This document shows positions 29,294 to 41,558 of a stretch of DNA of 64,000 bases, in pieces. The DNA lies in contig JAQGPJ010000021.1 in assembly GCA_028293125.1 (NCBI GenBank), positions 62,001 through 126,000 of the forward strand, in the 5' to 3' direction. Below the pieces are notes generated by a model that made no database searches, was not told where the DNA came from, and saw only the letters and a list, made by a program, of their open reading frames with translations. The position numbers and the translations under genes are program-made. The DNA comes from Verrucomicrobiales bacterium. Its GTDB lineage: Bacteria; Verrucomicrobiota; Verrucomicrobiia; Verrucomicrobiales; V1-33. Numbering within the stretch: the first letter of the stretch is position 1; each line of letters starts with the position of its first letter.

Positions 29294-29540
29294 GGGAAAC
29301 AGGAAAGCTGGACATCCTTACGTCTGAAGGCGGTGAAAAGAAGCCGAATTCACAGCATGAAGGCCGCCAAGCCAAAAAACAACCCCCAAAACACCCCCGT
29401 TAAAATTCTCCAAAACTGCCCCGCCATCGCGGAAATGAACGATGATGGTGGAAAAAAGACGGTCTTCCGGAAAAAATTGTCGGATTCCGCCCGGCGGGTG
29501 GTTCCTATCCTGTGAAGCGTTTTTCCGCCTCCCGCCCGCC

Positions 29541-31511
29541 ATGAATGCCGCCAGCCTTTCCACTGAAGCCGATGATCCGGCGCTGCTTCGCGACTATGTG
29601 GACCGGGGCTCGGAGAGGTCTTTCGCGGAGCTCGTGCGCCGTCATCTTCCACATGTTTACGCCGGGGCGCTGCGGCGGGTGAACGGCGACCGCGCTCTGG
29701 CATCGGATGTGGCGCAGACGGTGTTCGCGGACTTTGCCCGGAAAGCTCCCGGACTGACCCACCTCGCCGTGCCCGGCGGCTGGCTGCACCGGCATGCGGG
29801 GTTTGTGGCGGGAAAGCTGATCGACCGCGAGCGCCGCCACCGCCGGCGCGAGCAGGAGGCCGTCCAAATGAACACGCCCACCGAATATGAAGCCGATCCC
29901 GCCTGGGCCGCCACCGCGCCGCGGCTTGACGCCGCGCTGGATGCCCTGCCCCGCGCCGACCGCGACGCCATCGTGCTCCGCTTCTTCGAGCACCGGGACT
30001 TCCACGCGGTAGGGGCGGCCCTCGGCATCAGCGACGACACCGCGCAGAAGCGCGTCAGCCGCGCCTTGGAGAAACTGCGCGCCCACCTCACCCGGCGCGG
30101 CGCGGCCACCGCCGCCGTCACCGCCGCTGCCCTGCCAGGCCTGCTGCTGAATTTCGCCGCCCCGCATGCGCCCGCCGCCTTGGCAACGGTGGTCTCCGGC
30201 CGGGCTCTCGCGCTGGCCGCCGCTCAGCCCGCCGGATGGCTGGGCGCTTTCCACCGCGCCTCCGGGTGGCGGAAAACCGCCCTGGGATTCGCCGCCGCCA
30301 CCGCCGTGGCCGCCGTGCCGCTGACCCTGCAGCACCGAAGGCTGACGGAGACCGGGCGGGCCATGGCTTCGGCCACTGCCAAGCCTGCGGCTCCCGCTGC
30401 GCCTGCCCCCGCGCCGCCGCTCCCGGAAGCCAAGCCCGGCATCGCACAAGCTTCCAGCATTCCGGATCTGATCGACCAAGCCGCCGCCCTGCTGAAAGGG
30501 GGCCGGCAGGATGTCTCCGCCATCTCGGGCGCCCTGGCTCTGCTGACGCGCATTCCCCCGGACCAAATGCGGGACGCTCTGACCCGCACCGCAGGGATCG
30601 CGGACGAGTCCGCGCGCGGCATGATTTACAAATACCTGCTCAGCTACTGGGCGGAGAGCCAGCCTTTTGAAGCCCTGCAGTTCGCCCGCACGGAAATCCC
30701 GGAAAACCAGCGGGCCATGGTTTGCGAGGGAGTGCTGACCGCTTGGGCCGCGCGGGATCCCGGATCCCTGCTGGGGTGGCAGGAGAAAACCCGGGCCGTG
30801 GCCCCGCCGCCCATTCAGGACTCTTTGATGGCCACCGTTTTCAAAACCCTGGTCTCCCGCGACCCCGCCGATGCCTTCCGCCGGCTGGAGCAGACCCCGG
30901 CCGCCAACAGCCGCGCCCAGGCCCTGCGGGGCATAATGGAGACCATCCAGACCGATGCCGACCGCGTGCGGATGCTGGAGCTGACGAAAAATTGCCAGGA
31001 CAGCGACCTCCGCCTGCAGGCGCGCCGGGCCGTGGTGGAGCACTGGGCGCAGCGGGACCCGGCTGCAGCTGCTGAATGGGTGGACGCCGCCCAGCCCGCC
31101 TGGGAGCGCACCCGCCTGATGGACAGCCTGGGCTACGCCTGGCTGCAGTCGGATCCCGCCGCCGCCGCCGACTGGTGGCTACGGCGCGCGCCGGGCCCTG
31201 ATACCTTGGTGAAGATCATCAACGTCTGGGCGCAGGAGGATCCCAACGCCGCGGGCACCTGGCTTTCCCGGCAGCCGCCCGGCCCGCAGAGCGACACCGC
31301 CCGCATGACCTTCGCCCGGCAGGTCGCGGACCTCGATCCCGCCAGTGCCCTGCGGTGGGCGGAGACCGTTACTGATCCCACGCAGCGCGAGGGCACCATC
31401 GACCATATCTGGGAGACCTGGCACGCCCGCGACACCGCGGAGGCCAACACCTTTCTCAACACCTCCAACTGGCCCGCCGACCGGCTGGCCCGTATGGCTT
31501 CATCGAAGTGA
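29541..31511 (+). CDS. ECF-type sigma-70 factor fused to a membrane helix and helical-repeat domain
   Basis: The protein has 656 residues from the ATG at 29541 (MNAASLST); an in-frame ATG at 29442 reads through sequence of non-coding appearance. Residues of about 15-80 are sigma region 2 (FAELVRRHLPHVYAGALRR, ASDVAQTVFADFARKA) and about 130-185 region 4 (LPRADRDAIVLRFFEHRDF, LGISDDTAQKRVSRALEKLR). A hydrophobic stretch near 190-225 and a likely membrane helix near 244-262 (TALGFAAATAVAAVPLTL) follow, then a Pro/Ala linker. About 360 residues remain, built of repeats with WAQRDPAAAAEWV, WLQSDPAAAADWW and WAQEDPNAAGTWL. Classic ECF factors end after region 4 and use a separate anti-sigma factor; here the tail may do that job in cis. 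No anti-sigma gene is adjacent. Confidence 0.87.
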   Translation: MNAASLSTEADDPALLRDYVDRGSERSFAELVRRHLPHVYAGALRRVNGDRALASDVAQTVFADFARKAPGLTHLAVPGGWLHRHAGFVAGKLIDRERRHRRREQEAVQMNTPTEYEADPAWAATAPRLDAALDALPRADRDAIVLRFFEHRDFHAVGAALGISDDTAQKRVSRALEKLRAHLTRRGAATAAVTAAALPGLLLNFAAPHAPAALATVVSGRALALAAAQPAGWLGAFHRASGWRKTALGFAAATAVAAVPLTLQHRRLTETGRAMASATAKPAAPAAPAPAPPLPEAKPGIAQASSIPDLIDQAAALLKGGRQDVSAISGALALLTRIPPDQMRDALTRTAGIADESARGMIYKYLLSYWAESQPFEALQFARTEIPENQRAMVCEGVLTAWAARDPGSLLGWQEKTRAVAPPPIQDSLMATVFKTLVSRDPADAFRRLEQTPAANSRAQALRGIMETIQTDADRVRMLELTKNCQDSDLRLQARRAVVEHWAQRDPAAAAEWVDAAQPAWERTRLMDSLGYAWLQSDPAAAADWWLRRAPGPDTLVKIINVWAQEDPNAAGTWLSRQPPGPQSDTARMTFARQVADLDPASALRWAETVTDPTQREGTIDHIWETWHARDTAEANTFLNTSNWPADRLARMASSK

Positions 31512-33390: not shown

Positions 33391-33663
33391 ATGGCCCAGG
33401 CAATCATGGATCCCGAGGAAGTGCGGCGCTTCGCCAAGGAGTTGAAGCGTTTCAACGACGACATGCAGTCCCGCGCGGCGGCCCTGCAGGCGCGGTTCAC
33501 CGCACTTGGCAACAGCTGGCAGGATCAGGAGCAGCTGAAGTTCGCCGAGGAGTTCGTGACCACCATGAAGGTGCTGAAGAAATTCATGGAGGTCAGCGAG
33601 CAGCACACCCCCTTCCTGATGCGCAAGGCGGCCCGCATCGAGGAGTACCTTGACCAGCGCTGA
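33391..33663 (+). CDS. WXG100-like small protein
   Basis: The protein has 90 residues, entirely helical in appearance. A central turn at about residues 40-45 carries W43-x-D45 (GNSWQDQEQLKF), flanked by two amphipathic helices, the layout of WXG100/ESAT-6 proteins in which W-x-G or a variant marks the hairpin turn. F51, eight residues after W43, matches the usual W-x-G-x-A-x3-F pattern. The start is the ATG at 33391; the larger open frame upstream is not coding. It is the first gene of a tight cluster with a coiled-coil protein, a second small W-x-D protein and an FtsK/SpoIIIE ATPase, the context expected of a type VII secretion substrate. WXG100 assignment from sequence pattern alone is probable, not proven. 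Confidence 0.68.
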   Translation: MAQAIMDPEEVRRFAKELKRFNDDMQSRAAALQARFTALGNSWQDQEQLKFAEEFVTTMKVLKKFMEVSEQHTPFLMRKAARIEEYLDQR

Positions 33664-33699
33664 AGCCTTCAACCCTGTCATCACGCCACTGCCACCGCC

Positions 33700-34284
33700 A
33701 TGTCCGAGCAGGCGAACATCCGGTCCCTTGACGCCCTGGAGTCATTCCGGGCCGCGCTGATCATTTACCAGACCAAGGCCAAACGGGCGCTCGATATGGC
33801 CTTGGAGGAGACCCGGGCCATGGAGCGCTGGGTGCGGGAGGACCAGCGTGTCCGCTGGGAGCAGGAAATCCGGAAACAGGAGCGCCTGCTGGAGCGCGCC
33901 CGCGCGGAACTGATGACCGTCCGCATGTCCGCCCTGGCCGACCACACCGTCATGCAGCGGGAGGCTGTGAAGCGCACCGAGCGGGCCCTGGCCCATGCCC
34001 AGGAAAAACTGAGATTGGTAAAAAGATGGTCCCGCGATCTGGACACCGTCATCGGCCCCCACATCCGCCGCCTGGAAAGCGTCCGCGAGCATTTCCAGCA
34101 CGATCTCCCCAAAGCCGTCACCTGGCTCCACCAAGCCCAGATCACCCTTTCAGATTACATCAGCGCCATCGGCGGAGCCCCTGCGGGAATGAACCTCCCC
34201 ACCTCTCTTTCCAGCACCGGAGATCAGCCACAATCCGAATCCCCACCGGATTTCCCGGCTCCTCCGCTGAAAACTGAAAACTGA
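33700..34284 (+). CDS. Coiled-coil protein of the WXG100/FtsK module
   Basis: The protein has 194 residues, starting 37 bp after the WXG100-like gene. Residues of about 10-135 are highly charged helices rich in Arg, Glu and Ala (AKRALDMALEETRAMERWVR, KQERLLERARAELMTVRM, KRTERALAHAQEKLRLVKRW) and should form a long coiled coil. A second helix ends at LPKAVTWLHQAQITLSDYIS. The last 45 residues are Ser/Pro-rich and unstructured. There is no signal peptide or membrane helix. It could be a chaperone or structural partner of the module, or a longer WXG-like/LXG-like effector scaffold; no family is recognised. A CTGAAAA heptad array covers its final codons, with the stop TGA at 34282-34284 inside it. 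Confidence 0.7.
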   Translation: MSEQANIRSLDALESFRAALIIYQTKAKRALDMALEETRAMERWVREDQRVRWEQEIRKQERLLERARAELMTVRMSALADHTVMQREAVKRTERALAHAQEKLRLVKRWSRDLDTVIGPHIRRLESVREHFQHDLPKAVTWLHQAQITLSDYISAIGGAPAGMNLPTSLSSTGDQPQSESPPDFPAPPLKTEN

Positions 34285-34297
34285 TAAACTGAAAACT
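34267..34297. repeat. CTGAAAA heptad array at a gene end
   Basis: CTGAAAA at 34267-34273 and 34274-34280, a variant CTGATAAA at 34281-34288, then CTGAAAACT at 34289-34297. It encodes the last residues (LKTEN) and stop of the coiled-coil gene and reaches almost to the start of the next gene at 34305. Confidence 0.75.
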
Positions 34298-34304
34298 CCT
34301 CCCC

Positions 34305-34514
34305 ATGAGCTCCGGCACCTCCTCCAACCTCGAAACCGCCACCCGTGACATGATGGCCGCCTGGGCGCGCACCCAGGACCAATGGCGCGACCAGAAAAGC
34401 CGGCAGTTTGAAGAGTCCCATCTTGCCCCCCTGCCGGGGCTGCTGGCGCAGTCCCGGGAAGCCCTCTCCAATCTGGAAATCATTCTGCGCAAAATCAAAC
34501 ACGACTGTGAATAG
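34305..34514 (+). CDS. Second small WXG100-like protein
   Basis: The protein has 69 residues. It carries QWRDQKSRQFEESH with W27-x-D29, matching SWQDQEQLKFAEEF of the 90-residue protein in the pattern W-x-D-Q-x4-F-x-E. Amphipathic helices flank it. It is shorter than a typical WXG100 protein (about 100 residues), lacking part of the second helix. Its TAG stop (34512-34514) overlaps the GTG start of the ATPase gene (34507), so translation of the two is probably coupled, and they are likely made together. It could be a partner or heterodimer mate of the first small protein, or an adaptor for the ATPase. Confidence 0.62.
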   Translation: MSSGTSSNLETATRDMMAAWARTQDQWRDQKSRQFEESHLAPLPGLLAQSREALSNLEIILRKIKHDCE

Positions 34515-37500
34515 CCTCCCCGCCCCCGATCTTTCCGCCGCCCGCACCGCCTCCCTGCTGCACCAACTCACCGGTGCCCTGGCCAGCCATGCGCGGGCCG
34601 TGGAGGACCTCACCCGTGAGCAGCGGGTCCAGCGGCTCACCCTGGAGCGCCGGCAGCAGGAGGCCACCAGTCTTCTGGAGGACCGGATCGCCCAGGAGCT
34701 GGAGGCGCTGGACTCCTTCTGGGTGGCCAAATGGGAAAGCACCCGCTGGCACCACGAGCAGCGCATGCTGCGCATCGAGCGTGCGGAACGCAACTGCCTG
34801 CGCGATCTTCCCAAGCGCACCGAGGCCGCGCGGGCCCGATGGCTGGGCGGCATCCAGCGCGAGCGCATGCAGATGGAGCGCACCCTGGCGGGCGGCTCCT
34901 CCGCGCTGACCCGGCAGTTGGAAAGCCTGGCCGCCCGGCTGGATGGTGCCCGGCCCGCGCTGGAAAAACAGCTCCGCGCCGCCCGCACCGCGTTTCAGGG
35001 ATCGCCCGGCTTTCAGCGGTTTCTGAACCCGCCCGCACCGGCATCGGTGCCTGCGCCACCATCGGACCGGGAGACGAGCCCCTTCAGCCTGGAGGAGGCT
35101 GAAAAGGAACTGACCGGCGTGGAGGAGGGCCTCAGCGCCACCGACCAGCTGCTGGCCGCCTATCAGGCCCAGGCCCTGCCCCGCTTTTTCAAAACCGTCC
35201 ACCCCGCGATCGTGGCCATGATCCTCATCGCCGGCGCGGTGGCGTGGGCGGGCATTTCAAGTTTCAAAAATCCGGACACCCTGCGCCTGGCCGGTATCGC
35301 CGCCGGAGGTGGGCTTCTGGTGCTGACGGTGGTGTATTTCACAGCCATGAAAGCCGCGCGCCCGGCGGCGGAGGCGCTGGCACGGGCCATTCCCGGGGGA
35401 CTGGCCGTTACCGAGCGGCTGCGCCCGCAGGTGGATGCCGCCCTGGCGGCGCACCACGACCGCCTCAAGGCGGAGCAGGAGAAAATTGCCCAGGAGATGC
35501 AGACCAAGCGCGGCTCCGTGGACAGCATCGGCAACGAGTTTGCCAGCGGGGCGCGCCGGAAAATCAGCACTCAGGCTCTCCGCATTGCCACCAAAAATGA
35601 GTCCCTGATGAATATGAAGCGGAATGTGCTGGAGACGGGCCACGCCGCCGAGTCCGCCACGCTGCAGGAAAAGCTCAATGCCCGCCGGGAGGCCCTTACC
35701 GCCAAACAAGCCGGGGAAACCGCGGCCCTTTCCGCCAGAACGGAGGAGCGCTGGCAGACCGTGGAGAAAACCTGGCAGGAGGCGGTGCCCGGCCTTTTTC
35801 AGGAGCTGGACGAAATACGTCAGGCCACCGCGCGCACGCCGGTGCCCGGGAATGGTGAAAGCTGGACTCCCCCCACGGAATTCAGCTCCCTCCTGCCGGT
35901 GGCGGAGCTGGCAGTGGATCTTGAAAAACACGCGGGTGCTCTGCCCCGCACCCCGCGCCTGCCACTGCCCCCGGACATCCAGCCGCTGCGCCTGCCGCTC
36001 AGCCTGATTTTTCCGCTTCAGGGATCCCTGATCCTGCGGACTCCCGGCCCGGCGCGCGGGGAGGCGGCGGACATGCTGAATCTGACCATTCTCCGCCTGC
36101 TGGCCTCGTTCCCGCCAGGGAAGGCCAGCTTCACCATCCTCGATCCCGTCGGCCTGGGTCAGAACTTCGCCGGGCTGATGAATCTGTCCGACTACGAGGA
36201 CAGCCTGATCAACCACCGTATCTGGACCCAGCGGGATCAGATTGAGGAGCATCTGGCCACTCTGAGCAAGCACATTGAGAAAGTGATCCAGATGTATCTG
36301 CGGAACGAGTACGCCACTATTTCCGAATACAATGCCCAAGCCGGCAGCGTCGCGGAAAAATACCATTTCCTGGTCATTGCCGACTATCCCGCCAACTTCA
36401 GCGAGACCGCCATGCAGCGGCTGGAGAGCATCCTCGCCAGCGGTCCCCGCTGCGGGGTCTTCACGCTCATGCACGCCAATGAGCGCGCCCTGGCGCCTGC
36501 CGAATCCGGCAGCATCCAGCAAAGAACGGACAGTCTGGTGCTCTGTCAGGAAAACGGAGCATGGACCCTGCCCGGCACGCCGGCGGCGGGGGTGACCATC
36601 ACCCCGCTGCCGCCGCCGCCCGCGGAGCAGGCCGCCGCCCTGCTGCATGCCATCGGCCGGGCCAGCGTGGACTCCGGACGCGTGGAGGTGCCCTTCTCCG
36701 CCATCACGCCGGCTCCGCAGGATTACTGGAAAAACGACACCGCCCAGGAGCTCCGCATCGCCATCGGCCGCACCGGGGCCACCAAGCAGCAGATCATGGC
36801 CATCGGCAAGGGCACCCGACAGCACGCGCTGTTCGCCGGGAAAACGGGCTCCGGCAAATCCACGCTCTTCCACGTCATCATCACCAATCTGGCCCTGTCG
36901 TGCAGTCCGGATCAGGTGGAGTTCTACCTCATCGACTTCAAAAAGGGCGTGGAGTTCAAATGCTATGCCACCAAACGCCTGCCCCACGCCCGCGTGGTGG
37001 CCATCGAATCCGACCGTGAGTTCGCGCTCAGCGTGCTCCAGCGGCTGGACGAGGAGCTGAAGCGACGAGGCGAGCGCTTCCGCCAGCTGGGTGTGCAGGA
37101 CCTGCCGGGCTGGCAGCGGGCCGGGACCGGCGAACCGATTCCCCGCACCCTGCTGATCATTGACGAATTTCAGGAATTCTTTGTGGAGGACGACCCCATC
37201 GCCCAGAGCGCCTCCCTGCTGCTGGACCGCATCGTCCGTCAGGGCCGCGCCTTCGGTATTCACGTGCTGCTGGGCTCACAGACGCTGGGGGGTGCCTACT
37301 CGCTGGCCCGCGCCACCCTGGGACAGATGACGATCCGCGTCGCCCTCCAGTGCAACGAGGCCGACGCCTACCTCATCATGGATGACAACAACTCCGCGCC
37401 GCGCCTGCTTTCGCGGCCCGGTGAAGGCATTTACAACGACGCCGCCGGAGCCGTGGAGGGCAACAGTCCCTTCCAAGTCGTCTGGCTGCCCGACGCGGAG

Positions 37501-38463
37501 CGCGATCAGTGGCTGGACAAGGTGCAGGCGCTGGCCGCAGCCTCGGACCGTCCGCCTCTGGCACCGGTCGTCTTTGAAGGCAACGCGCCCGCCGATCTGC
37601 GTGGCAATGTGCTGCTGCGGAGGGTTCTGGAAAGCATCCCGGTCCAGTCTCCCCCAGCGGGCCGCTGTTGGCTGGGTGCGCCGAACTCCATCAAAGGTCC
37701 CACGGAGGTCACCTTTCAGCGCCAGAGCGGTCAGCACCTGCTGGTGGTCGGTCAGCGGGACGAGGCCACGCTTACCCTGCTAGGGCTTTCGCTGCTGGCC
37801 CTGGCGGCGCAATATCCCGCCGGCACCGCCAAGTTCTACTTTTTCCACAGCGCCACTCCGGACACGCCAGCGGCGGAATTCATCGACCAGATCATCGCCA
37901 CGGTGCCCGGCGCGGCCATCACCCAGGTGCACCCCGCGGGGTCCGCCAGCGCCATGGCGGAGATCGCCGTCGAACTGAAGTCCCGCAGCTCCGGTGCGGA
38001 TGAGGGTGCCGGCCACGGCGCACCGCCGGTCTTTGTGCTGATCCACGGTCTGCACCGCTTTAAAAAACTGCGCCAGGAGGACGACTTCAGCTTCTCCACG
38101 GACGCCGACAGCGGAGAGAGCGCCGGCGCGCAGTTCACCACGCTGATCACCGAGGGCAGCGGCCACGGCCTGCACCTGCTGGTGACACTGGACACCTTCA
38201 ACAATGTGAGCCGCTGCATGAACCGCAAGGCCCTCACGGAGTTCGAGATGCGCGTGGTGTTCCAGATGAGCGCCAACGACTCCTCCAGCCTCATCGACTC
38301 CCCCGCCGCCAGCAATCTAGGCCTGCACCGCGCGCTGTTCTACAACGAGCACGACGGCACGCTCGAAACCCTCCGCCCCTACGCCGCGCCGGACAGCGGC
38401 TGGCTGCTGGAGGCCGCGGAGGCGCTCGGCAGCCACCAGTCCGGCCCGGCCCCGGTTCTCTGA
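34507..38463 (+). CDS. Membrane-anchored FtsK/SpoIIIE-type ATPase, EccC/EssC-like
   Basis: The protein has 1,318 residues from a GTG that overlaps the previous stop; a longer frame begins inside that gene and is not believed. Layout: long coiled coil (about 10-200), two membrane helices (about 236-256 and 259-281), a second coiled coil (about 300-445), then three RecA-like ATPase units. Unit 1 (about 495-745) has no P-loop. Unit 2 (about 750-1010) is canonical, with Walker A GKTGSGKST (778-786), FYLIDFKKGVEF, Walker B LLIIDEF (D886) and GIHVLLGSQTL. Unit 3 (about 1020-1318) is degenerate (LLVVGQRDEATLT). Three tandem units in one membrane protein are the hallmark of type VII EccC/EssC motors; DNA-pumping FtsK has one unit plus a gamma DNA-reading domain, absent here. 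The WXG100-like neighbours support protein export. Confidence 0.8.
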   Translation: MNSLPAPDLSAARTASLLHQLTGALASHARAVEDLTREQRVQRLTLERRQQEATSLLEDRIAQELEALDSFWVAKWESTRWHHEQRMLRIERAERNCLRDLPKRTEAARARWLGGIQRERMQMERTLAGGSSALTRQLESLAARLDGARPALEKQLRAARTAFQGSPGFQRFLNPPAPASVPAPPSDRETSPFSLEEAEKELTGVEEGLSATDQLLAAYQAQALPRFFKTVHPAIVAMILIAGAVAWAGISSFKNPDTLRLAGIAAGGGLLVLTVVYFTAMKAARPAAEALARAIPGGLAVTERLRPQVDAALAAHHDRLKAEQEKIAQEMQTKRGSVDSIGNEFASGARRKISTQALRIATKNESLMNMKRNVLETGHAAESATLQEKLNARREALTAKQAGETAALSARTEERWQTVEKTWQEAVPGLFQELDEIRQATARTPVPGNGESWTPPTEFSSLLPVAELAVDLEKHAGALPRTPRLPLPPDIQPLRLPLSLIFPLQGSLILRTPGPARGEAADMLNLTILRLLASFPPGKASFTILDPVGLGQNFAGLMNLSDYEDSLINHRIWTQRDQIEEHLATLSKHIEKVIQMYLRNEYATISEYNAQAGSVAEKYHFLVIADYPANFSETAMQRLESILASGPRCGVFTLMHANERALAPAESGSIQQRTDSLVLCQENGAWTLPGTPAAGVTITPLPPPPAEQAAALLHAIGRASVDSGRVEVPFSAITPAPQDYWKNDTAQELRIAIGRTGATKQQIMAIGKGTRQHALFAGKTGSGKSTLFHVIITNLALSCSPDQVEFYLIDFKKGVEFKCYATKRLPHARVVAIESDREFALSVLQRLDEELKRRGERFRQLGVQDLPGWQRAGTGEPIPRTLLIIDEFQEFFVEDDPIAQSASLLLDRIVRQGRAFGIHVLLGSQTLGGAYSLARATLGQMTIRVALQCNEADAYLIMDDNNSAPRLLSRPGEGIYNDAAGAVEGNSPFQVVWLPDAERDQWLDKVQALAAASDRPPLAPVVFEGNAPADLRGNVLLRRVLESIPVQSPPAGRCWLGAPNSIKGPTEVTFQRQSGQHLLVVGQRDEATLTLLGLSLLALAAQYPAGTAKFYFFHSATPDTPAAEFIDQIIATVPGAAITQVHPAGSASAMAEIAVELKSRSSGADEGAGHGAPPVFVLIHGLHRFKKLRQEDDFSFSTDADSGESAGAQFTTLITEGSGHGLHLLVTLDTFNNVSRCMNRKALTEFEMRVVFQMSANDSSSLIDSPAASNLGLHRALFYNEHDGTLETLRPYAAPDSGWLLEAAEALGSHQSGPAPVL

Positions 38464-39898: not shown

Positions 39899-40819
39899 TC
39901 ATGCCAGACTGAGATCATCGACCACGGAGCGCAGCCGCCCCTGGTCAATGTGGGTGTAGCGGGCGGTGGTGGACAGGCTTTTGTGGCCCAGCAGATCCTG
40001 CAGTTCCCGGAGGTTGCGGCCCCGCTCGTTGAGCAGCAGGCTGGCGGCGCTGTGCCGCAGGCCGTGGGCGGTGATCACCTCCGCCCCCACTGCCCGGCAG
40101 GCCGCCGCCAGCTTTTTGTTGAAGGCCTGATTGCTGAGAGGGGCTCCGTCCCGGCCCGGAAACACCAGCTCACTGCCGGCGAACCCGACATGGCCCTGCC
40201 GCAACCGGTGCCCCTTGAACCCCTCCAGAAAAGCTCCCCATTCCGCCAGCGACTCCCCCAGACGGGGCATCACCGGCACATCCCGGTATTTGCCGCCCTT
40301 CACTTTCAGCCGGGCGGCGGTCACCTGCCCTGCCCCGTCATACATCAGCCGGTCCCTGGAAAGGAGCGCCCACTCATGAAACCGGCAGGCCGTGAAGAAG
40401 AGAGCCTCCGCAAGGTGACTGGCCAGATGGTCAAAGTAATCCCGGCGGTGCCGCCGCAGCTCCAAGAGCACTTTGGCAAGCTTTCCGCCCTCCAGATGGC
40501 GGATCTCCACGGCGTCCGGCCGGAATTTCGGGGCCAGGCAGTCCGCAAAGGGGTTGGGGGCCTCCAGCACCCGGTAGAGGAACGCCAGGGCTGCCTTCAC
40601 CTGAAGGTGGTGGGAGGCCCCACGGCCACGGGTCAGCCCCGTGTAAAACTCCTCCGCCCTGGCCTGAGGAAGCGCGGCGGGGTCCAGAGAGAGGGAGGCG
40701 GCGCGGATGACGGTGTCCCGCCAAGTGCGGCGGTAGGCGGCCAGCGTGGGACCGGACAAGCCGCGCTGGGCGGCGGCGGCATTGAGCTTTTCAAGGATTT
40801 CCTGGGAGCTGGCGGGCAT
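39899..40819 (-). CDS. Tyrosine recombinase/site-specific integrase (XerC/D-like)
   Basis: The protein has 306 residues from the ATG at 40819 (MPASSQEIL); an upstream start at 40876 adds 19 residues of no family character. The N-terminal core-binding (SAM-like) domain occupies about residues 5-90 (LNAAAAQRGLSGPTLAAYRR). The catalytic domain holds Arg in FFTACRFHEWALL, Lys in VKGGKYRDVP, H-x-x-R in TAHGLRHSAA, His in LGHKSLS and nucleophile Tyr in TTARYTHID, so it looks active. The first Arg box is ACRFHEW in place of the usual TGxRxxE. It is Xer-sized, but the local context (gene-poor, TPR remnant, inverted flanking repeats) fits a mobile-element integrase at least as well as housekeeping XerC/D. 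Confidence 0.88.
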   Translation of the reverse strand: MPASSQEILEKLNAAAAQRGLSGPTLAAYRRTWRDTVIRAASLSLDPAALPQARAEEFYTGLTRGRGASHHLQVKAALAFLYRVLEAPNPFADCLAPKFRPDAVEIRHLEGGKLAKVLLELRRHRRDYFDHLASHLAEALFFTACRFHEWALLSRDRLMYDGAGQVTAARLKVKGGKYRDVPVMPRLGESLAEWGAFLEGFKGHRLRQGHVGFAGSELVFPGRDGAPLSNQAFNKKLAAACRAVGAEVITAHGLRHSAASLLLNERGRNLRELQDLLGHKSLSTTARYTHIDQGRLRSVVDDLSLA

Positions 40820-41558
40820 GGGGCGGCGGAAAACCGCCTTTTCAGGGTGCCGCAGCGGGCCGGGTGGGCAACCCAATTTTTATAACTTGAGAATGGATTC
40901 CAGATTCCCTGCAAGGGAGCCTGTCCTGCGCAGGTGAAGGATACAGCCGCCCCATTTCCCGGCTCCCGCCCTCTCGAAGCACCGCCAGCCATGGCATGCG
41001 TTATCCACGCCGCCCCTGCATGGCGATGCCGGACGGTTATTCCTCCCTGGGGCCTGCAATTCTCGTCCAAGTCATGAAGGCGGAAAATCAGAAATCCCGT
41101 GGTTTGCTCCACAGGTCCGGTTTCAGTCCGGCCTTCCCGGTCCCGCTCCGACACGGCTGAAACCACTCCCAAAATCAGAGGCCTGTGCCCGCATGCTTTG
41201 GATCCTCATAAAGCTGGAGTGCCGCGCTTTCACCGAACTGCCATTCCACCAGTCCAGGCATTGGCCGCCGCACGGGCGGACTGCCAAAAAGTTCCCCATA
41301 TCAAAGTGCACGGGCGGCAAGATCGGAGCAGCTCATGTAGGCAAAGACGGTTTTGATATTCATAACCATTTAATCCGGTTGAACGGTTCCGGAAGCTCTT
41401 GGAGATGCGGAGAGCTTCCCAGGCGCGCCGGAACGCAGATTCCGATCATCAGCATGGCTGATGATGCTCCCCGCCCCGGGCGTGCCGACACACCAGACTC
41501 AAAGCCAGACTCAAAGCCAGCCGCCAAACATAGGCTATCTATTGCCACCACTGCCCTT
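40820..41558. other. Gene-poor region of about 740 bp
   Basis: No convincing protein-coding frame or RNA gene was found. The frames that are open on either strand do not resemble known proteins. It includes a 12-bp tandem repeat (41494-41520) and AAAGC ... GCTTT arms around 41210-41230. It may hold decayed sequence of a former insertion. Confidence 0.5.
41494..41520. repeat. 12-bp tandem repeat
   Basis: CAGACTCAAAGC occurs at 41494-41505 and 41506-41517, followed by CAG. It is non-coding. Confidence 0.7.

What the first reader, a model, noticed from the sequence alone, without database searches (positions are those of the whole stretch)
33391..38463. Reduced type VII (ESX/WXG100)-like export module in a diderm bacterium
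Four tightly packed genes encode a 90-residue W-x-D helical-hairpin protein, a 194-residue coiled-coil protein, a 69-residue W-x-D protein and a 1,318-residue ATPase with two membrane helices and three tandem FtsK/SpoIIIE-like units, the layout of EccC/EssC. No other known type VII parts (EccB, EccD, EccE, MycP, EsaA, EssB) are nearby, and the host has an outer membrane. This could be a minimal or otherwise undescribed export system, possibly with different outer-envelope partners. Seen: motifs, order, overlap. Inferred: export function.
Basis: partly seen in the sequence, partly recalled or inferred. Interest (0 to 1): 0.82.

Follow-up and report, generated by a model that had tools for sequence, protein, structure and literature searches.

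The report
Pared-down type VII-like module, Verrucomicrobia
Four linked genes in an outer-membrane bacterium encode a stripped-down relative of the type VII protein-export machine, a kind noted in passing since 2012 and not confirmed by experiment, and their strict conservation across Verrucomicrobia makes that open question testable.

Summary
[quoted passage not shown] All four genes stay together in 69 of 72 other loci, nearly all labelled Verrucomicrobia or related phyla, with no conserved flanking genes and no toxin domain. EssB, EsaB/YukD and LXG families are absent from the whole genome.

It is not undescribed as a kind. Zhang et al. 2012 noted solo WXG proteins with a three-domain ATPase, only the middle one active, in verrucomicrobia and other diderms ("mobile versions of T7SS"). 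Bell et al. 2024 describe a soluble cousin inside CoCoNuT defence loci. Helicobacter HP0062/HP0066 is another relative.

Apparently new: the membrane-anchored, toxin-free four-gene form. In one genus the ATPase lost its anchor, while a separate two-helix membrane protein sits divergently beside the module in ten genomes.

Most likely function: an inner-membrane motor handling, and probably exporting, its own helical-hairpin proteins. Export is inferred, not shown. Verdict: new variant of a known, untested kind.

The parts
33391..33663 (+). WXG100 protein, W-x-D form (90 aa), helical hairpin
   Evidence: PF06013 33.1 bits vs cut-off 27.3; profile matches HP0062 structure 3fx7 at 8e-14 and EsxB/EsxA structures; 70% mean pairwise identity over 70 loci
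33700..34284 (+). 194-aa protein: long two-helix hairpin with Pro/Ser-rich C-terminal tail
   Evidence: AlphaFold2 H9-76, H80-157, pLDDT 84; conserved in position; no added C-terminal domain in 72 relatives
34305..34514 (+). 69-aa second W-x-D protein, WXG100-related
   Evidence: Profile comparison with the WXG protein E 2.8e-5; invariant W27, D29, F35
34507..38463 (+). EccC/EssC-like ATPase, 1,318 aa, GTG start overlapping the previous gene by 8 nt
35209..35343 (+). Transmembrane hairpin of the ATPase (residues 235-253 and 261-279)
   Evidence: Hydropathy; two segments in 62 of 76 relatives; cleanly absent in a clade of nine
36022..36618 (+). ATPase unit 1 (about residues 506-704), no nucleotide site
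   Evidence: AlphaFold2 model; one Walker A in the protein
36679..37575 (+). ATPase unit 2 (about residues 725-1023), active unit; Walker A GKTGSGKS at 36838-36861
   Evidence: PF01580 1.1e-26; closest to EccC D1; 78% mean pairwise identity
37648..38445 (+). ATPase unit 3 (about residues 1048-1313), no nucleotide site
   Evidence: AlphaFold2 model; profile closest to EccC D2

Best explanation
The module is a stand-alone, toxin-free, membrane-anchored member of the diderm WXG100 / three-unit EssC-like ATPase family. The ATPase is proposed to form a ring held at the inner membrane by its transmembrane hairpin, with long coiled coils and three stacked units in the cytoplasm; the middle unit alone burns ATP. 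The WXG100 protein (probably paired with the 69-residue W-x-D protein) and the long hairpin protein are the cargo or cargo adaptor, pulled through or remodelled at the ring and probably exported towards the periplasm. Shown: family membership, gene linkage, a single nucleotide site, a membrane hairpin in the sequence. Inferred: ring assembly, cargo identity, direction and export. No outer-membrane step is known.
For: WXG100 above its cut-off and best matched to HP0062, which also has a W-x-D bend and clusters with an FtsK gene. ATPase closest to EccC by sequence and fold. Same four genes in 69/72 loci without conserved neighbours. Two transmembrane segments in 62 of 76 relatives. In ten genomes of one genus the ATPase lacks the hairpin and a separate two-helix membrane protein is encoded divergently beside the module, as if the anchor had moved to another subunit. 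In relatives the hairpin protein's slot holds helical proteins ending in a nuclease, in Helicobacter a WHH/colicin nuclease followed by a SUKH immunity-like gene, as expected if that slot encodes exported cargo.
Against: No Y-x-x-x-D/E signal at the C-terminus of the WXG protein. No toxin, immunity or envelope partner gene linked consistently in Verrucomicrobia. Anchor loss in a clade of nine; one of these, L085, has no replacement membrane gene next door, and L074 may be a second loss. CoCoNuT-linked cousins are soluble and sit in defence loci. No secretion experiment on this branch was found.
Confidence: 0.52

Rival explanations
1. A cytoplasmic or membrane-associated defence complex: the ATPase ring and its WXG/hairpin partners sense or process invading nucleic acid, as suggested by the CoCoNuT-associated version, without secreting anything.
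For: Soluble homologues lie in Type III-A CoCoNuT loci with CARF, VWA, PP2C and kinase genes. [quoted passage not shown] Anchor loss in one clade.
Against: None of these defence genes is linked to the module in Verrucomicrobia; PADLOC gives no hit for the three small proteins and only ATPase-type or coiled-coil hits for the fourth; neighbours look like ordinary chromosomal genes; most ATPases keep a membrane hairpin.
Confidence: 0.22
2. A non-secretory membrane complex: the ATPase remodels or assembles the hairpin and WXG proteins into an internal envelope-associated structure.
For: No exported toxin or outer-membrane partner is linked, and the cargo-like proteins are conserved and not polymorphic.
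Against: The WXG100/EccC pairing is tied to export in characterised systems (Garrett et al. 2024); related loci carry toxin-immunity-like pairs.
Confidence: 0.18
3. A DNA-pumping FtsK-type translocase with incidental small neighbours.
For: The active unit belongs to the FtsK/SpoIIIE Pfam family and FtsK motor structures match it.
Against: FtsK model 24 bits against 107 for EccC; no FtsK-like single-motor layout; linked WXG100 gene in 69/72 loci.
Confidence: 0.04

Closest known systems
'Solo WXG' plus YueA-like three-domain ATPase of diderms (Zhang et al. 2012, PMC3482391, Table 1 note 6)
   Same: WXG protein with an EssC-like ATPase of three FtsK/HerA domains, only the middle one active; verrucomicrobia named
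[quoted passage not shown] 2024, PMC11090510)
   Same: Three ATPase units with only the central one active, long N-terminal coiled coil, two WXG100-like proteins, a coiled-coil protein in the same slot
   Different: The CoCoNuT form lacks transmembrane helices, carries a nuclease on the coiled-coil protein and lies between VWA genes in a defence operon; none of this holds here
Helicobacter pylori HP0062/HP0066 and a plasmid relative in Helicobacter sp. NHP19-012
   Same: W-x-D WXG protein clustered with an FtsK/SpoIIIE gene; profile match to HP0062 structure
   Different: The plasmid relative has a helical-nuclease protein and SUKH immunity-like gene between WXG and ATPase, and a shorter ATPase
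T7SSa/T7SSb and T7SSc-j (Garrett et al. 2024, PMC11217815)
   Same: EccC/EssC-type membrane ATPase encoded with a WXG100 protein
   Different: Three instead of four nucleotide-binding domains, no EssB/EsaB/LXG in the genome, no canonical export signal, diderm host

Membership tests
Type VII secretion system (T7SSa-j) | WXG100 protein encoded with the ATPase | tested here: met
   PF06013 above gathering score; linked in 69/72 loci
Type VII secretion system (T7SSa-j) | EccC/EssC-type ATPase | tested here: inconclusive
   EccC/EssC models are the best hits but below their curated cut-offs; fold best matches EccC
Type VII secretion system (T7SSa-j) | Four nucleotide-binding domains in the ATPase | tested here: not met
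   Three units in the model; best register lacks D3
Type VII secretion system (T7SSa-j) | Further membrane components (EssB; EccB) and EsaB/YukD | tested here: not met
   PF10140 and PF08817 absent with a positive control; EccB search had no working control
Type VII secretion system (T7SSa-j) | Y-x-x-x-D/E export signal on a WXG100 protein | tested here: not met
   C-terminus ends RIEEYLDQR; no such motif in the 70-sequence consensus
Type VII secretion system (T7SSa-j) | ATPase-dependent secretion | not testable with these tools
   Needs experiment
Diderm solo-WXG / three-domain ATPase family (Zhang 2012) | Three FtsK/HerA units, only the middle one active | tested here: met
   Three units; one Walker A in 75 of 76 relatives
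Diderm solo-WXG / three-domain ATPase family (Zhang 2012) | Solo WXG protein alongside | tested here: met
Diderm solo-WXG / three-domain ATPase family (Zhang 2012) | Mobile | tested here: inconclusive
   Flanks vary; a tyrosine recombinase lies 1.4 kb downstream; no element ends were sought
Type III-A CoCoNuT extension (Bell 2024) | Located between VWA genes within a CoCoNuT operon | tested here: not met
   No conserved neighbours in 80 loci; window neighbours are a sigma factor, MarC and a recombinase
FtsK DNA translocase | Best match to FtsK models | tested here: not met
   FtsK 24 bits vs EccC 107 bits

The most novel reading that the evidence does not exclude
A minimal protein-export machine of diderm bacteria, built from one membrane-anchored three-unit ATPase and three dedicated helical proteins, that has no toxin cargo and serves a conserved physiological role; in one genus its membrane anchor has been moved to a separate, divergently encoded subunit.
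Probability: 0.33. Interest if true: 0.78.

Novelty: new variant of a known kind. Interest (0 to 1): 0.52.

Why it matters
A 2023 review (PMC10765036) states that WXG100/FtsK pairs in Gram-negative species have not been confirmed as secretion systems. It appears to lack the last ATPase domain and the canonical signal, so if it exports anything it shows how little a type VII motor needs. The anchor-less clade with a separate two-helix membrane gene is a natural experiment on whether membrane attachment is essential.

Tried and rejected
DNA pump: rejected on model scores. Phage or plasmid origin: no phage or plasmid record covers 80% of the ATPase, and PHROGs has no hit for the small proteins. 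Linked effectors: neighbours of 80 loci are not conserved. Orphan relatives of the hairpin and WXG proteins were sought in 12 carrier genomes; beyond the modules there were only weak hits, apart from a second, divergent WXG system in G212. Toxin fused to the hairpin protein: none in 72. Homology of the hairpin protein with the coiled-coil part of the nuclease fusions: profile comparison not significant, so the equivalence rests on gene position. Fold search with the hairpin model: nothing at E <= 0.001. Equating ATPase unit 1 with EccC D0: not supported by profiles; the fold search also matched EccC/EssC D2-D3 structures, so the register is likely, not certain. EccB search: uninformative, no control rang.

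Full report
OBSERVATION. WXG100: 33391-33663. 194-aa protein: 33700-34284. Short W-x-D protein: 34305-34514. ATPase: GTG start at 34507 to 38463, overlapping the previous gene by 8 nt. The 90-residue protein passes the Pfam WXG100 gathering score (33.1 bits against 27.3) and is the only match in the genome. Its family profile hits the solved structure of Helicobacter pylori HP0062 (E 8e-14) and EsxB/EsxA structures. HP0062 has a W-R-D bend and clusters with an FtsK/SpoIIIE gene (PMC3397514). The 69-residue protein is related to the 90-residue one by profile comparison (E 2.8e-5), sharing W-x-D and a following Phe. The 194-residue protein is predicted as one long two-helix hairpin.

ATPASE. NCBI models for EccCa, EccCb and EssC score 107, 95 and 90 bits against 24 for FtsK, although none of the first three reaches its curated cut-off. 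The best PDB matches by sequence and fold are EccC of Thermomonospora curvata. AlphaFold2 gives three RecA-like units. Only the middle one has a Walker A motif; 75 of 76 relatives also have exactly one. Domain-by-domain profile comparison with five Streptomyces EccC proteins places unit 2 on D1 (E 3e-22) and unit 3 on D2 (E 4e-7), leaving no D3; unit 1 sits in the position of D0 but is not recognisable as D0. The fold search also found EccC/EssC D2-D3 structures, so this register is likely, not certain. Two transmembrane segments (235-253 and 261-279) lie between regions that look like coiled coil.

CONSERVATION. A search of 289 genomes of the phylum found about 15 with a long, high-scoring homologue. 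Of 72 with enough upstream sequence, 69 carry all four genes in the same order. No flanking gene family is conserved around the module; neighbours look, by eye, like ordinary chromosomal genes. The WXG protein is the most conserved of the four (70% mean pairwise identity; ATPase core 61%, its unit 2 78%; the other two small proteins 39%). None of 72 hairpin proteins carries an added domain; their tails are short and Pro/Ser-rich.

WHAT IS MISSING. EssB (PF10140), EsaB/YukD (PF08817) and LXG (PF04740) are absent from the whole genome, with B. subtilis as a positive control. EccB gave no hit but its control also failed. Omp85 proteins are present, consistent with an outer membrane.

RELATIVES ELSEWHERE. 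Plasmid homologues show the wider family. Caballeronia: VWA, WXG100, a 436-aa helical protein, two small proteins, ATPase, then CARF, VWA, PP2C and kinase, which resembles the published Type III-A CoCoNuT extension with its coiled-coil nuclease (PMC11090510). Helicobacter: WXG-like protein, helical protein ending in a WHH/colicin nuclease, SUKH immunity-like gene, a 77-aa protein, ATPase. A second copy in one genome of the phylum (L048) follows the Caballeronia layout. So the slot of the 194-aa hairpin protein is held by longer helical proteins, at least one with a nuclease domain, in relatives. Profile comparison did not prove the helical parts homologous.

ANCHOR LOSS. Nine ATPases form one clade (support 1.0) in which the transmembrane hairpin is cleanly missing; L074 is a possible independent loss. 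In ten genomes of one genus, several of them the same genomes as in that clade, the ATPase has no such helices, all four module genes are present, and a protein of about 240-270 aa with two predicted transmembrane segments is encoded divergently right beside the WXG gene. G188 of that genus, which lacks the WXG gene, also lacks this protein. A genome of another genus (G368), with only a distant, unlinked homologue, keeps the hairpin in its ATPase. This suggests that the anchor was transferred to a separate subunit. It is a correlation within one genus, and one anchor-less locus (L085) has no such neighbour.

PRIOR ART. Zhang et al. [quoted passage not shown] The ATPase here fits that description. 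A 2023 review says such Gram-negative pairs are functionally unconfirmed (PMC10765036). Garrett et al. 2024 describe T7SSa-j in Gram-positive phyla (PMC11217815). No held paper describing the membrane-anchored four-gene form was found; most subscription papers, including Anantharaman et al. 2012 cited by Bell et al., were not available to me.

MECHANISM. The best reading is an inner-membrane ATPase ring that handles, and probably exports, the three small helical proteins. The single nucleotide site, the membrane hairpin in the sequence and the strict linkage are shown; ring formation, cargo identity and export are inferred. Against export stand the missing Y-x-x-x-D/E signal, the lack of envelope partners and of cargo toxins, and the soluble defence-linked cousins. 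My confidence is about 0.9 for family membership and about 0.5 for export.

Noticed in passing
L084:2002-2733 (-); L187-L196: Divergently transcribed protein of about 240-270 aa with two predicted TM segments and no Pfam family, beside the module in ten genomes whose ATPase lacks the TM hairpin; duplicated in tandem in one (L193).
   Followed up: partly
L048:5654-11778 and L049: A second, more divergent WXG/ATPase system in the phylum; L048 has VWA, WXG, a 442-aa helical protein, two small genes and an ATPase without TM helices, the CoCoNuT-extension layout.
   Followed up: partly
L112:3199-3800 (+): A HigB/HigA-like gene pair, judged by eye from the sequence, inserted between the hairpin-protein and 69-aa-type genes.
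   Followed up: no
window 29442-31511 (+): Sigma-70-type factor (regions 2 and 4) with a long C-terminal extension that looks repetitive.
   Followed up: no
window 39899-40876 (-): Tyrosine recombinase (phage integrase family) 1.4 kb downstream of the module, past a MarC gene; no element ends were sought.
   Followed up: no
L055 and L056 (Rhodococcus plasmids): Related three-unit-type ATPases beside helical proteins with unidentified C-terminal parts, near TerD-family genes in one and Hsp70/GrpE genes in the other.
   Followed up: no
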